Below, in pieces: positions 22,974 through 63,655 of a stretch of DNA of 64,000 bases. Source of the DNA: Mesoplasma entomophilum (GTDB taxonomy: Bacteria > Bacillota_I > Bacilli_A > Mycoplasmatales > Mycoplasmataceae); the NCBI RefSeq assembly GCF_002804125.1, contig NZ_CP024966.1:248001-312000 (forward strand), written 5' to 3'. The notes under the pieces are model-generated. The model saw only the letters and a program-made list of their open reading frames with translations. It did no database searches and was not told where the DNA came from. The translations under genes were made by a program, and so were the position numbers. Position 1 is the stretch's first letter; each line of letters starts with the position of its first letter.

Positions 22974-22977
22974 AAAC

Positions 22978-23004
22978 AAATCACTTTTTAAAAGTGATTT
23001 TTTT
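22978..23004 (+). terminator. Terminator after metK
   Basis: AAATCACTTT / AAAGTGATTT with a short loop and seven T. Confidence 0.85.
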
Positions 23005-23038: not shown

Positions 23039-23521
23039 ATGAATAAATTAATAAGCAATAATTTTTTTAGAATATTAGTCTTGTATTTTACAGTTTCATT
23101 TTTTCTACCAAAATTAGGATTTTTAGTGCCTTTAATTGTAGTGTTTTCACTTTTTTATTCAGTTTTTAAAATTTTTAAAGAAATTAGAGTTAAGCCTAAA
23201 TTTATAGGAATATTCTTTATTCTTTTCTTTCTTTGGACATTGTTTATTCTGGTTTTTACAATTGCAATTTTATTAGTTATATTTAAAAATAATAGTACAT
23301 TATTAAACTTTAAATTATCAGTTACAATATTTTGTTCACTAATAATGGTATTTAATTTTAATCCATTTATGAAAATAACAATCTTAAGTGATAAAAATAA
23401 CTTTAGATTATATGTTTTTTTTACAAAAATTATTAAAAATATTAATTACTCATGTTTCTGAGGAAAATTGATTGTCCTTAAAAAATTAATTTGGTATAGA
23501 CAAGATATTTCTTCTATTTAG
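23039..23521 (+). CDS. Unknown small membrane protein preceding an ABC transporter
   Basis: This 160-residue protein is almost entirely hydrophobic, with about four membrane segments (near 10-24, 27-43, 56-82 and 94-114) and a polar C-terminus ending KKLIWYRQDISSI. It shows no recognisable family. An AGGAG lies before the ATG. Two TGG codons occur in addition to one TGA(Trp), slightly unusual in this genome. Its TAG is the first part of a 17-bp hairpin leading into the ATPase gene, so it probably forms one functional group with the next two genes. Confidence 0.75.
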
Positions 23522-23561
23522 AATCCTTCTATTTTAACAAAAAATAAAATAGGAGGATTCT
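23520..23561 (+). promoter_or_regulatory. 17-bp hairpin enclosing the RBS of the ABC ATPase gene
   Basis: AGAATCCTTCTATTTTA (23520-23536) pairs with TAAAATAGGAGGATTCT (23545-23561) over 17 positions with one T-G wobble and an 8-base loop. The 3' arm holds the AGGAGG Shine-Dalgarno of the ATPase gene, whose ATG is two bases further on. No T run follows, so it is not an ordinary terminator. If it forms, ribosomes could not reach the start; release could depend on translation of the upstream gene, whose stop lies in the 5' arm, or on a factor. Confidence 0.8.
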
Positions 23562-23562
23562 C

Positions 23563-24270
23563 ATGAAAGAATTAATCAAAATAAACAATATAAAAAAAAC
23601 AAATATTTTACAGGAAATAAATTTAAGTGTTTTTGAAAATGAATGTATTTCAATTATGGGCAATAGCGGAGTGGGTAAATCAACACTTTTAAACATCTTG
23701 TCAGGTATTGAAAAACCATCAGAAGGAAGCATTATAATTGATGGAACTAATATATCAGAATTGAAGGAACCTAAATTAACAAAATTTAGATCAAAAGAAA
23801 TATCATACATTTATCAAGATTATAAATTAATTGAATATTTAACTGTTGAACAAAATATAAAATTTGTAGAGAAAAATAATAAAAACATAATTAACGAACA
23901 AAAATATTTTAATTTACTAAAAGAACTTGGATTAATTGAAAAAGAAAAGATTATTGTATCTAAGTTATCAGGTGGACAAAAACAACGTGTAGCAATTGCA
24001 CGAGCATTACTTGGAAATTCAAAGATAATATTGGCAGATGAACCAACAGGAGCTCTTGATTTAATCAACACTAAAAAGGTATTAGAAGAATTAGTAGTTA
24101 ATAGTAAAAAATTGGGAAAAACTTTAATTATAGTTACCCATTCACCACAAGTTGGACTTGAAACAGAAAAGATTATTTTAATGAATAATGGAAAAATAAC
24201 AGAAGAAATTAAAACTAAAGAAATAACAATGGCTAAATTAGAAAAAAAACTACTTATTGAAAATGCATAA
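23563..24270 (+). CDS. ABC transporter ATPase, MacB/LolD/BceA type
   Basis: The 235-residue ATPase has Walker A GNSGVGKST, a Q-loop in YIYQDYKL, signature LSGGQKQR, Walker B IILADEPTGALD and H-loop VTHSPQ. The Q-loop and the LADEPTGALD form are typical of the LolD/MacB/BceA branch, which works with FtsX-type permeases in lipoprotein handling or peptide-antibiotic resistance. The permease gene overlaps it by eight bases. Its AGGAGG is inside the preceding hairpin, so expression may be controlled at translation. Substrate unknown. Confidence 0.92.
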   Translation: MKELIKINNIKKTNILQEINLSVFENECISIMGNSGVGKSTLLNILSGIEKPSEGSIIIDGTNISELKEPKLTKFRSKEISYIYQDYKLIEYLTVEQNIKFVEKNNKNIINEQKYFNLLKELGLIEKEKIIVSKLSGGQKQRVAIARALLGNSKIILADEPTGALDLINTKKVLEELVVNSKKLGKTLIIVTHSPQVGLETEKIILMNNGKITEEIKTKEITMAKLEKKLLIENA

Positions 24271-25540
24271 TAGTAAAATATTTAAGCAATTAAAGTTTTA
24301 TAAAAGTTATAACATACCAATATTCATAACATTATTTTTATCTTCAGTGTTTACTAATTCATCTTTATTTTTATTTATTTCTTCGCTTAAACAGTTTGAT
24401 AAGAATTCTAACATGTCTTTAATTTTTATTATCCTTTTTGGACTATTACTATTAATTTCAATATCAATGACTACATTAATAATAAGTATAAATTTTAATG
24501 TCAGAGAAAAAGATCTAATAAATAGAAGATTAATAGGATTGTCTTTTAAAAATTTATTTAAAAATTTATTGCATGAACAGCTAATCATAATGGTTCCGAG
24601 TTTTATTTTAGGATTTTGTTTTTCAATAGTCTTAAATAAACTGCTTATTGCAAATTTAATTCAAAAGTCTATACTTCAACAAGACTTTTTAATAAACTAT
24701 TCATTTTTAAATATAATTTTAGTACTTTTAATAAGTTTTGTAACTTTGTTTGCAATTATTTATGCATCAACAAAAAAATACCAATGAATTGAAGAAAGCA
24801 ACAAAGATAATAAAAAGAAAACCATTAAAAGTCAAATTATTAAAATTGTATTAGGATTTATGTTTATCATTTCGTATTTTCTACTAATTGTATTTAATAA
24901 TACAGAGGTTTTATATTTATTTGGAGGAATATTCTTTATTATAGGCCTACATCTATTGTTAGAAATTATGATAAAAATAATTACCAAAATACTTTTTCGT
25001 GTTTCTACAAGTTCATTTGTATTCTCTAGTTCAATAAAAAATATGCAATATAATGCATCTCTAATAACTAAAATTATTTTAATGCTTGTTAACTCAATGA
25101 TTTTTTTAAATTTTTCAATTAACGTAATAGGCAAAATGGGTGTTCAAAGTTATGAAATAAATCCTAACACTCAATATATAAATGGTTTGATATTTTTAGG
25201 AGCATATTTAAACATTGTATTTGTGAGTTTTACATTTGTTATTATAGTCAACGGTTTTTTAATGTATTTAAGAAGTTTAGAAAAAGAAAATTTTATATTA
25301 AGACAACTAGGCTTTACTAGAAAAAAAGTTTTTGTCAGAAATGTTTTACAATTTATTATAATTTGATTTCTTTATGTAATATTAGCATTTACAGCAACAG
25401 TTTTAATATCATTAATTTGAAATGATAAAGCAGCTTTATCCAATTTTATATACTGAATTATTGAAATTTTTGCGGTTCTAATACTTATGTTGCTACTATG
25501 CTTAAGTAATTGATTTTTTAAAATTATTAAAAATAAATAA
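24263..25540 (+). CDS. ABC transporter permease, FtsX-like
   Basis: The 425-residue membrane protein follows its ATPase with an eight-base overlap. It has about eight membrane segments arranged as a group of four, a cytoplasmic linker near 175-195, and a second group. An NRRLIGLSFKN segment in the first half and ILRQLGFTRKKVF in the second resemble the coupling loops of FtsX-type permeases. No large extracellular domain is present, so it resembles the BceB/FtsX core without the MacB periplasmic domain. I choose the ATG at 24263 over a TTG two codons earlier. Substrate unknown. Confidence 0.82.
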
Positions 25541-25544
25541 TTTT

Positions 25545-25567
25545 GACGTCTTAATTGACGTTTTTTT
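25545..25567 (+). terminator. Weak terminator after the ABC pair
   Basis: ACGTC / GACGT with a 6-base loop is followed by seven T; the stem is short. Confidence 0.6.
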
Positions 25568-25602
25568 ATTATAAAATAATAACTAATAAAAGGAGAGTTT
25601 AT

Positions 25603-59013: not shown

Positions 59014-59559
59014 ATGAAAAAAGTAGCAATTATTTTGCATAAAAATTTTGAAGAATCAGAAGCTATTGTAACAATAGATATATTGAGAAGATCTGAAATC
59101 ATTGTAGATATATACAATCTTCAAGAAAAAGATTTTCAAGTAGGTTCTCATAATATAATTGTAAAAACAGAATATAAGGTTGAATCATTGAATTCAGATG
59201 ATTATGATGGAATCGTTATACCTGGAGGACCCGGGGTAAATGATTTATTTGATAATGAAATATTATTAAATTTAATAAGAGATTTTAATAGTAGTAACAA
59301 AATGATTAGTGCCATATGTGCTGCACCACAAATCTTAGGTCAAGCTGGCATTATTGATGGTATTAAAATTGTAAAATTCCCTACTTCTAATAAATATTTA
59401 GAAAAAGCTTTTATTCAAGAAAAAGATAGTATTATAGACAAAAATATCGTTACAGGATCAAGTATTGGAACAGTAGTCCCATTTGCCTTAAATATAATAG
59501 AATATCTACAAGGGAAAGAACAAAAAGAAAAAATTAAACAACAACTTGTAATTATTTAA
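59014..59559 (+). CDS. DJ-1/PfpI family protein
   Basis: The 181-residue protein has the DJ-1/PfpI fold motifs: an acidic FEESEAI near residue 14, VIPGGPGVNDL, and the reactive cysteine in ISAICAAP (Cys102), then GSSIGTVVPFALNII. Members act as deglycases, chaperones or peptidases, and are often linked to oxidative or carbonyl stress; the activity here is open. It follows the giant permease after eight bases (AGGAG within the gap) and ends at a terminator, so it is co-transcribed with permease copy 2. Confidence 0.93.
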   Translation: MKKVAIILHKNFEESEAIVTIDILRRSEIIVDIYNLQEKDFQVGSHNIIVKTEYKVESLNSDDYDGIVIPGGPGVNDLFDNEILLNLIRDFNSSNKMISAICAAPQILGQAGIIDGIKIVKFPTSNKYLEKAFIQEKDSIIDKNIVTGSSIGTVVPFALNIIEYLQGKEQKEKIKQQLVII

Positions 59560-59560
59560 C

Positions 59561-59596
59561 AAAATCACCTTACTAATACAGTGAGGTGATTTTTTT
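59561..59596 (+). terminator. Terminator hairpin carrying the RBS of the C39 transporter gene
   Basis: AAAATCACCTTAC (59561-59573) pairs with GTGAGGTGATTTT (59581-59593) with one T-G wobble and a 7-base loop, and seven T end at 59596. It looks like the terminator of the DJ-1 unit, but GAGGTGA in the 3' arm is also a near-ideal Shine-Dalgarno five bases from the TTG start of the next gene. Confidence 0.82.
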
Positions 59597-61412
59597 GAAG
59601 ATAGTGAGACAAACCTCATATCAAGATTGTGGTGTAGCTTGCATAGCAATGATGATAAATCATTTTTATAAGTATGAAATAGATTTACAACAAGTTAAAA
59701 ATTACTTATCAATTCATGATGATGAACTAAGTTTTTATGACATTATTGATTTAGCTAGTAATTTTTATTTGAAAGGAGATGCTTTTAAAGTAGACCAAGA
59801 TTTTTTAGAACTAAAAAATAAAGTTCCCTTTTTAGCACAAGTAGTTAATTCTGATGGACTATTGCATTTTGTTATAGTCGAAAGTATTTTGCAAAATGAT
59901 TTAATTATATTTGACCCTAGCAAAGAAAAAAAGACAAAGCAAAGTTTGCCTGAATTTTTAAAAAGTTTTAATGACAATGTAATAATTTTTAAATCTAATA
60001 TTAAAGAATTTAATAACGACTTTAAATTTAATTTTAAAAAGTTTTTGAATATTTTCAATTTTGATTTTATTCTTTACTTAATAATAAACTTAATATCAAC
60101 AATTTTATTTATTTTAGATACACAATTTTTGAAGATGTTTTCAAACTCATTATCTGAAAAAACACAAGACTTTTTGATTTACTTATTTCCACTAATTATT
60201 TTACTATTCAATATTCTATTCAAGAATATATCAATTCATATCATTAATATTAATTATAAAAAAAGAAAATATTCTTTATTGAAAAAATTTTCAAATCTAA
60301 TTGAAACTACAAATTCAGAAGATTTATTTTATTTATATCAAGAAATAAAATGAGTATGTCAATATGAAAACTACAGTTTAAAAAGCAGCGTTTCATCACT
60401 TATTTCTGAAATAGTAAGTTTAATTTTTATTTATTTTATTATTAAAGAGTTGTTTTTAATAATACTTATATCCGACATTATTTATATATTTATAAATATT
60501 TGTATAAACAATTTTGTTAAAAAAGATAATTTAAGTTCTGATAAGGAATGATTTAATTTTTTAAGTAATATACAACACATAAAAAATATTTGTGCTGAAT
60601 ATGATGTATTAAATGAACTTATTAAACTAGAAGAAAAAGACAAATTAGCTAACTCAACACTTAATTGAATTGAAGTTTGAGATAAAGCTGGGTTAATATT
60701 AATTTATATTATTAGTTGGTCTTTATTAAAAAATGGCAATTTAGAGTTTTCATTTTTCTTTATAATTTTGTTATTAAAAAACTTTAGCAGAGTTAATATT
60801 TTTAATTTGGGTCAAACCATAATCTGAATAAAAAAATATAAAATAGCGATTATTAAATTTGAAAAGATTTTTATTGAAAATAATTACATTAACTTTAATG
60901 AAGATATAAACAATATTGAAATTTCAAGCACAGAAGAAAAAATAAAATTAATTAAAGGGCTAAACATAATAAATTCAAAAATTGATTTAGGTAATATAAA
61001 TAAAACTAAAAATGACACAAATGTTAACGTCTACATAAATAATAAAAACATTAGTAATTTAAAAACATCTGATTTACGTAAACACATTTATTATTCAAAA
61101 AATTTTCAAATTAAATTTGGAACAATTTTTCAAAATATAACTTCATCAAATAAGCAAGGCATAAATATTTTTACTATTAAAGAAATTAATGACCTTTTAA
61201 ATAAATATTCAATTAAAATAACTAAACTAGTTAAACCAGAAACTAATACTCAACTTGAAAAAGAAATAATTAAATTATTAAATGTGTTTTACATTAATAA
61301 AAAAGTAATATTGATTAAAAATGATTTTCAAATAATAAGTTTTGATGAAATAAAGTCCATTTTAGCTATCTTTACTAAATTAAGTGATGATAAATTTTTG
61401 ATTTTGTCTTAA
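59595..61412 (+). CDS. C39 peptidase/ABC exporter with degenerate ATPase domain
   Basis: The 605-residue protein has the layout of peptidase-containing bacteriocin exporters. Residues about 1-130 form a C39 peptidase with Gln6, Cys12 (QDCGVAC), His91 (LHFVIV) and Asp107 (FDPS), which normally cleaves double-glycine leaders. Membrane segments follow (about 155-420). The last 160 residues correspond to the ATPase domain: an INNKNISNLKTSDLRKHIYY block resembles the segment after Walker A, but Walker A itself, LSGGQ and Walker B are all missing. The frame is intact to TAA. I choose the TTG start at 59595 because of GAGGTGA; a GTG at 59586 is an alternative. No precursor peptide gene is visible nearby. 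Confidence 0.85.
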
Positions 61413-62852: not shown

Positions 62853-63655
62853 TGAGTGAAATAAAAATAAAAGCTGTTGTTTTAGATTCTTTTAATTATG
62901 AAGAAAATGACAAAATAATTACAGTTTACTCTAAAGAATTCGGTAAACTAAGCTTTATTGCGCTTGGAGCAAATAAACCTTCAAGTAAAAACAATTACTC
63001 ACTTAATCTGTTTTCAGTAGCTAATTTTGAAATATTTAAGTCAAGAAAAGCTCAATCTATTTCAAAGTTAAAAACCGGAACACTAATAAATGACAATTTT
63101 AAAATAACTAAATCATACAATAACTATTTGTTTGCTAGTATTATATCTTCAGTCATTTTGCAAGAAGATTTATTTTACAATAAAGACCCTAAGTGGTTTG
63201 ACATGCTTCAAGAAGCAATTAAGAACATTAATGACGAAATAAATCCCTTTTCAAATATGGTTTGATTCCTATTTTATTCGTTAAAAAACTTTGGTGGAAA
63301 TTGAGAACTAAAAAAATGTTATAGATGTAATAAACCAAGTAAAATATACAGAAGATTTGATTTAAATAATTTTGGTCTTGTTTGTCCAAACTGTATTTAT
63401 GAAAATGAAGAAGAACAAGACTTTGAGTTTATTAAGTATTTGCAAAGGATGGATAATAACACATTTTTCACAATACAAAAATTCTCTATAAACGTATCTT
63501 ATGAAATAATTATCTCTAAATTAATCTTAGGATATTATTTAAATGAATTAGGAATATATTCATTCCCAATAAAAGAGATTTTAAAAAAAGAAGTATATAA
63601 TGAAAACACGTTTTGAGAGTACTCTCATAGAGTGTTGACAAACAGTAGTATTTAA
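62852..63655 (+). CDS. recO: DNA repair protein RecO
   Basis: RecO helps load RecA and anneals DNA during repair. The 267-residue protein has an N-terminal OB-fold (KAVVLDSFNYEENDKIITVYS), a helical middle, and a zinc-finger-like Cys pattern: Cys-x2-Cys in KKCYRCN and Cys-x2-Cys in LVCPNC. Three or more TGA codons encode Trp. It follows era with a one-base overlap, the usual order. Confidence 0.93.

What the first reader, a model, noticed from the sequence alone, without database searches (positions are those of the whole stretch)
23520..23561. A 17-bp hairpin buries the Shine-Dalgarno of an ABC ATPase gene
Seen: a 17-pair stem with one wobble and an 8-base loop spans the stop codon of the upstream membrane-protein gene and the complete AGGAGG of the ATPase gene, ending two bases before its ATG. 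There is no T tract, so termination is unlikely. Inference: translation of the transporter is off unless ribosomes finishing the upstream small membrane protein, or a factor, open the stem. The upstream protein could thus act as a leader that couples its own synthesis to the transporter. The symmetry could alternatively be a protein-binding operator.
Basis: partly seen in the sequence, partly recalled or inferred. Interest (0 to 1): 0.75.

Follow-up and report, generated by a model that had tools for sequence, protein, structure and literature searches.

The report
Ribosome-opened hairpin gating a transporter gene
In a small-genome bacterium, the mRNA start signal of a membrane-pump gene is folded into a hairpin that a ribosome finishing the preceding gene would pull open, and distant relatives keep the same arrangement with different letters, which suggests that the two genes' protein synthesis is linked on purpose.

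Summary
A 17-bp stem (16 Watson-Crick pairs, one G·U, 8-nt loop) runs from the TAG stop of a 160-aa membrane-protein gene across the whole AGGAGG of an ABC ATPase gene (z = -6.3). No other clear-SD gene in the window matches it (SD opening cost 17.3 against a median of 1.8 kcal/mol).

The operon (small membrane protein, ATPase, FtsX-type permease) exists in 14 genomes of several genera of the family, including Spiroplasma. All 14 predict a stem pairing the ATPase's SD with sequence around the upstream stop codon, although the arm sequences are unrelated between lineages. Distant homologues without the small membrane gene mostly lack the hairpin. The permease start overlaps the ATPase stop in all 13 intact operons, so one hairpin would gate the whole transporter.

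Best explanation: translational coupling by RNA unfolding. A ribosome ending gene 1 displaces the 5' arm and exposes the SD. This is a new member of a known kind, well supported by comparison but untested at the bench. Unrelated arm sequences argue against a sequence-specific factor or a DNA operator. The 'leader' idea is weakened: the upstream gene is an ordinary conserved membrane protein.

The parts
22974..23004 (+). intrinsic-terminator-like inverted repeat with T run after metK; separates the operon from metK
   Evidence: (I21), sequence
23039..23521 (+). gene 1: small membrane protein (160 aa, code 4), no Pfam/NCBIfam match; own SD AAGGAG is unstructured (opening cost 0.2 kcal/mol)
23519..23521 (+). 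TAG stop codon of gene 1, overlapped by the stem
23520..23536 (+). 5' arm of the hairpin (anti-SD arm)
23537..23544 (+). 8-nt loop ACAAAAAA
23545..23561 (+). 3' arm of the hairpin, holding the whole SD of the ATPase gene
23551..23556 (+). Shine-Dalgarno AGGAGG of the ATPase gene, 6 nt before the ATG, fully paired
23563..24270 (+). gene 2: ABC ATPase (235 aa), MacB/LolD/FtsE-like, nearest NCBIfam model L_ocin_972_ABC (below its cut-off)
24263..25540 (+). gene 3: FtsX-like permease (425 aa); ATG overlaps the ATPase stop by 8 nt
25545..25572 (+). terminator-like stem and T tail closing the three-gene unit

Best explanation
The hairpin is a translational-coupling gate inside a three-gene transporter operon. 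SHOWN from sequence: the ATPase's SD is paired with sequence at the end of the upstream gene; this is conserved across the family while the arm sequences are replaced; the 5' arm always lies from about 24 nt before to 18 nt after the upstream stop codon; the permease start overlaps the ATPase stop. INFERRED: gene 1 is translated from its own open SD. A ribosome finishing gene 1 covers or melts the 5' arm, exposes the ATPase SD for a short time, and lets a ribosome (new or re-initiating) start the ATPase. The permease then follows by termination-reinitiation at the overlapping stop/start. Without translation of gene 1 the transporter is made poorly. The likely benefit is fixed stoichiometry or ordered synthesis of three parts of one membrane complex.
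For: Stem strong and unique in the window. Fourteen genomes of the family have the operon, and all predict an SD-pairing stem with different sequence: e.g. CCTCTTTAAATTAAAAAA/TTTTTTAATTTAAAGAGG in G023, TTTCTTTTTTTA/TAAAAAAGGAGA in G021, and in G031 a stem whose 3' side ATTTTAGAAAGGG pairs with coding-end sequence. SD opening cost: median 6.3 against 1.8 kcal/mol for 38 control genes (Mann-Whitney P = 4e-6; 4e-5 with 11 roughly independent lineages). Within operons gene 2 exceeds gene 1 in 12 of 13 (P = 2e-4). Upstream-shuffle P combined over six lineages that leave out the focal genome and its close relatives: 0.0025. 5' arm position relative to the stop is conserved. A footprint of -15..+12 at the stop removes the stem. 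Distant ATPase homologues without gene 1 mostly have open SDs. Gene 3 overlaps gene 2 by 8-17 nt in all 13 intact operons. No Rfam match apart from chance metazoan miRNA models.
Against: No expression data. Taken one by one, several relatives' stems are not significant (upstream-shuffle P > 0.1 in G001, G002, G021, G064, G031, G072, G074), and in the arm-swap matrix only 5 of 14 genomes prefer their own arm over all others. In three close relatives the stem is only 8-10 bp and covers 3-4 of the 6 SD bases. A terminating ribosome might itself occlude the SD where the gap is short (26-31 nt in G031, G022, G064).
Confidence: 0.72

Rival explanations
1. Static attenuation: the hairpin simply lowers ATPase/permease output to a fixed fraction of gene 1, by equilibrium breathing, with no real dependence on upstream translation.
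For: SD burial is conserved but of very different strength between relatives (opening cost 1.3-17 kcal/mol), as expected if only a rough reduction is selected.
Against: The 5' arm sits at the upstream stop/coding end in every lineage, where passing ribosomes would open it; a static attenuator could use any 5' arm. At 17 kcal/mol in this genome breathing alone would give almost no product.
Confidence: 0.12
2. Conditional switch: the stem is opened only under some condition (ribosome pausing near the end of gene 1, temperature, or a factor), so that gene 1 acts as a sensing leader for the transporter.
For: In Spiroplasma-type operons and in an unrelated second operon the 5' arm encodes a C-terminal Pro-Pro, a classical EF-P-dependent pause motif; EF-P is present. 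PP is rare (3 in 20148 residues of 49 window proteins, none within 12 residues of a C-terminus).
Against: The focal gene 1 has no PP and ends ISSI. No shared arm or loop sequence that a factor could recognise. Gene 1 is a full-length conserved membrane protein.
Confidence: 0.11
3. mRNA processing or stability element (RNase III-type site) between gene 1 and the ATPase.
For: A long stem between cistrons is a typical place for it.
Against: Stems of 7-10 bp in relatives are too short for RNase III; what is conserved is pairing with the SD, not stem length.
Confidence: 0.04
4. DNA operator (inverted repeat bound by a transcription factor) or intrinsic terminator.
For: Dyad symmetry; a weak promoter-like match overlaps the 5' arm (23497-23524, 10 of 12).
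Against: Arms unrelated between lineages, loop length 3-53 nt; promoter-like matches are no more frequent than in shuffles (22 found, 26.6 expected); no T tract; operon terminators lie elsewhere.
Confidence: 0.01

Closest known systems
Translational coupling by RNA unfolding (phage f1 VII-IX, MS2 coat-lysis, E. coli rpmI-rplT; review PMC12548453)
   Same: A structure over the downstream RBS has its 5' strand in or just after the upstream ORF, so upstream translation disrupts it. rpmI-rplT has +52 nt spacing, comparable to the +41 here.
   Different: Those pairs were studied by experiment; here there is only sequence and comparison. This is a membrane-transporter operon in a Mollicute with repeatedly replaced stem sequence; the 5' arm shifts between coding end and spacer among lineages.
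Termination-reinitiation at overlapping gene pairs (PMC6728339, PMC10666635)
   Same: The permease start overlaps the ATPase stop by 8-17 nt in all intact relatives.
   Different: This is the ATPase-permease junction; the hairpin junction has a 26-83 nt gap, too long for classic overlap coupling.
Translation attenuators with leader peptides (erm/ABC-F type; from general knowledge)
   Same: SD hidden in a hairpin whose 5' arm belongs to an upstream reading frame; ribosome position decides.
   Different: The upstream frame is a conserved 160-aa membrane protein gene, not a short stall peptide; no alternative regulatory hairpin set was identified.

Membership tests
RNA-unfolding translational coupling | both genes on one transcript, same strand, short gap | tested here: met
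   gap 41 nt, no terminator between, terminator-like elements only outside the three genes; transcript itself not measured
RNA-unfolding translational coupling | inhibitory structure over the downstream RBS | tested here: met
   SD paired with probability 1.0, opening cost 17.3 kcal/mol
RNA-unfolding translational coupling | structure disrupted by a ribosome translating or ending the upstream gene | tested here: met
   in silico only: footprint at the stop removes the stem, one 10 codons earlier does not; 5' arm position conserved
RNA-unfolding translational coupling | pairing conserved through sequence change (supporting, not strictly defining) | tested here: met
   14 genomes, unrelated arms; statistics, with several single genomes not significant
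RNA-unfolding translational coupling | downstream translation depends on upstream translation | not testable with these tools
   needs reporter fusions or ribosome profiling
Intrinsic terminator | T tract right after the stem | tested here: not met
   stem is followed by C-ATG; terminator scan empty here
Known riboswitch / cis-regulatory Rfam family | covariance-model match above gathering score | tested here: not met
   no match in the region except chance metazoan miRNA models far below cut-off
Leader-peptide attenuator | short upstream ORF encoding a stall peptide | tested here: not met
   upstream ORF is a 160-aa membrane protein conserved in 3 same-genus species over its full length (52-76% identity)
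Lactococcin-972-type export ABC ATPase (TIGR03608) | score above curated cut-off | tested here: not met
   189 bits against a cut-off of 255

The most novel reading that the evidence does not exclude
The 5' arm doubles as a pause codon pair: in Spiroplasma-type operons (SPP/APP near the C-terminus of gene 1) and in a second, unrelated ABC operon of the same genus (NPP/TPP), a ribosome paused at Pro-Pro would hold the anti-SD arm open while standing short of the ATPase RBS. It would thus act as a timed or EF-P-sensitive gate for transporter synthesis. Codon changes that keep PP but weaken RNA pairing (CCTCC to CCACC or CCGCC in G001 and G002 of the second operon) suggest that PP itself is selected there.
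Probability: 0.1. Interest if true: 0.6.

Novelty: new member of a known kind. Interest (0 to 1): 0.42.

Why it matters
It is a comparatively well-supported example of inter-cistronic structure kept by selection while its sequence turns over. Mollicutes have few transcription regulators, so translation-level control of operon stoichiometry may carry more weight there. It gives a compact natural series (stems of 8-18 bp, gaps of 26-83 nt, arm before, across or after the stop codon) for testing RNA-unfolding against ribosome-scanning models of coupling, a question that the 2025 review (PMC12548453) leaves open.

Tried and rejected
DNA operator and terminator readings: rejected (no shared arm sequence, no T tract). 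Rfam: nothing real. A whole-genome pattern scan for TCCT..AGGA..ATGAA gave 13 places against 3 for the reversed pattern; of those folded, only the finding and the second ABC operon (L002/L070) clearly paired SD with an anti-SD at the end of an upstream gene, and two others were T-box-like terminators. The arm-swap test with a fixed 25-nt cut was too crude: it split several stems and gave mixed results, so SD opening cost was used instead. AlphaFold model of gene 1: pLDDT 62, pTM 0.33, all-helical, too poor for a fold search, which was not run. Profile comparison of Mesoplasma-type and Spiroplasma-type gene 1 did not establish homology, so gene 1 may be one fast-evolving family or two; the synteny is conserved either way. 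A weak promoter-like match overlapping the 5' arm was considered and dropped.

Full report
WHAT IS THERE. The window belongs to an 848-kb genome that reads TGA as Trp, a Mollicute of the Mesoplasma/Spiroplasma group; the genus name Mesoplasma is my inference from genome size, code and kinship, not a tool result. Between two terminator-like elements (22974-23004; 25545-25572) lie three co-oriented genes: a 160-aa membrane protein without family match (23039-23521), an ABC ATPase (23563-24270, MacB/LolD/FtsE-like; TIGR03608 189 bits, below its cut-off) and an FtsX-type permease (24263-25540). The hairpin fills the gap between gene 1 and the ATPase: arms 23520-23536 and 23545-23561, 16 Watson-Crick pairs and one U-G, loop of 8, from the second base of the TAG stop to two positions before the ATG. 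The SD AGGAGG (23551-23556) is entirely in the 3' arm.

IS IT MORE THAN CHANCE? The region folds 6.3 sd below dinucleotide shuffles, 0 of 200 as stable. Among 49 gene starts in the window, only this one and an ordinary terminator before a mis-called start reach z < -4. Among 38 other ATG starts with a clear SD the cost of freeing the SD has median 1.8 and maximum 9.0 kcal/mol; here it is 17.3.

RELATIVES. Searches with the permease alignment found the operon in 14 genomes of the family, in several genera, one of them decayed (G074); locus G022 matches Spiroplasma sp. TIUS-1, NZ_CP048387.1. A small membrane gene is upstream of the ATPase in all 14, and within the genus it occurs only in the genomes that have the transporter. 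In every one the MFE structure pairs the SD region with sequence around the gene 1 stop: G000 AGAATCCTTCTATTTTA/TAAAATAGGAGGATTCT; G003 TCCTATTTTA/TAAAATAGGA; G002 CCTATTTT/AAAATAGG; G021 TTTCTTTTTTTA/TAAAAAAGGAGA; G032 TCTTTATTA/TAATAAGGA; G023 CCTCTTTAAATTAAAAAA/TTTTTTAATTTAAAGAGG (18 perfect pairs); G074 CTTTTTTTAT/ATAAAGAGAG; G072 a long stem over an 83-nt gap; G064, G031, G069, G022 with the 5' arm wholly or partly inside the last codons of gene 1. The stems are not alignable as sequence between lineages, so pairing has been kept through wholesale replacement of both arms.

STATISTICS AND THEIR LIMITS. SD opening cost, orthologues against window controls: median 6.3 against 1.8, P = 4e-6 (14 against 38), 4e-5 with 11 roughly independent lineages. 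The ATPase exceeds gene 1 of the same operon in 12 of 13, P = 2e-4. Shuffling only the sequence upstream of the SD and keeping the SD: P below 0.05 in G000, G023, G032, G069, G022; combined P = 6e-6 over 11 lineages and 0.0025 over six lineages that exclude the focal genome and its near relatives. Several single genomes are not significant, and a crude arm-swap matrix is mixed. Controls come from one genome. Seven distant homologous ATPases in other contexts, without the small membrane gene, mostly have a cheap SD (opening 0.2-1.9 kcal/mol in six, 4.9 in one; 65-nt window).

GEOMETRY. The 5' arm lies between about -24 and +18 of the first base of the gene 1 stop codon in every case, the stretch covered or melted by a ribosome reaching the stop. 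Forbidding pairs in -15..+12 of the stop removes the hairpin in the window sequence (remaining fold -1.8 kcal/mol); a footprint 10 codons earlier leaves it intact (-20.4). The footprint size is from general knowledge. Gene 1 has its own accessible SD (0.2 kcal/mol), and the permease start overlaps the ATPase stop by 8-17 nt in all 13 intact operons. One gate therefore probably sets the translation of both transporter genes.

MECHANISM. Translational coupling by RNA unfolding: gene 1 is translated freely; the ribosome ending it opens the stem; the ATPase is initiated; the permease follows by reinitiation. This matches the RNA-unfolding model in the 2025 review of translational coupling (PMC12548453), where f1 VII-IX, MS2 coat-lysis and rpmI-rplT are given as examples. 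Dependence on upstream translation was not and could not be tested here. Whether the SD is then used by a fresh ribosome or by the terminating one is open; the 37-45-nt gaps in the Mesoplasma-type operons leave room for both.

WHAT IT IS NOT. Not a terminator (no T tract), not a known Rfam element, not a protein or DNA-operator site with a conserved sequence, and not a leader-peptide attenuator in the usual sense, because gene 1 is a conserved full-length membrane protein.

A POSSIBLE EXTENSION. In four operons with the arm in the coding region, gene 1 ends in SPP/APP plus a few residues. A second ABC operon of the same genus (L002; upstream 214-aa membrane protein P0004, ATPase 304 aa) ends in NPP/TPP, again with CCNCC facing the downstream GGAGG. 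There PP is invariant in five species although two have codons that weaken the RNA pairing. PP is rare in this proteome sample (3 in 20148 residues), and EF-P is encoded. A ribosome paused at PP would open the arm without covering the RBS. This is suggestive only.

VERDICT. Real, conserved and mechanistically coherent; an additional member of a known class of regulation, in a setting for which my literature searches found no description.

Noticed in passing
L002 (G000:C1:529021-532076), minus strand; hairpin region 530552-530605: A second ABC operon of the same genome has a 214-aa membrane protein whose coding end (AATCCTCC, residues NPP) can pair over a ~30-nt loop with the SD AAGGAGG of the next gene, an ABC ATPase; its start region is 84% identical to that of the finding over 56 nt.
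   Followed up: partly
L058-L062 and L027-L030, ends of the upstream membrane-protein genes: C-terminal Pro-Pro motif ([SNTA]PP followed by 2-7 residues) in two apparently unrelated membrane proteins that precede ABC exporter ATPases; PP kept in five species although codons change.
   Followed up: partly
L025 (G074:C1:1035777-1037022): Decayed copy of the operon (many in-frame TAA/TAG in ATPase and permease) that still has the small membrane frame and a 10-bp SD-pairing stem.
   Followed up: partly
window 23497-23536: The gene 1 coding end TCTTCTATTTAG nearly repeats the 5' arm CCTTCTATTTTA, so a second, competing anti-SD arm (9 bp with one G-U) exists inside the coding region.
   Followed up: no
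window 59586-61412: ORF whose N-terminus (SYQDCGVACIAMM) looks like a C39 peptidase domain of a bacteriocin-type exporter; its listed start lies within a strong terminator-like hairpin (59555-59599), so the true start is probably different.
   Followed up: no
L065 and L069 (G000:C1:210463 and 466955): T-box-like sequence (GGATGGTACCGCG) with a terminator hairpin ending just before a strong SD.
   Followed up: no
window 63605-63636: Palindrome AACACGTTTTGAGAGTAC/GTACTCTCATAGAGTGTT, 83% complementary, arms overlapping.
   Followed up: no
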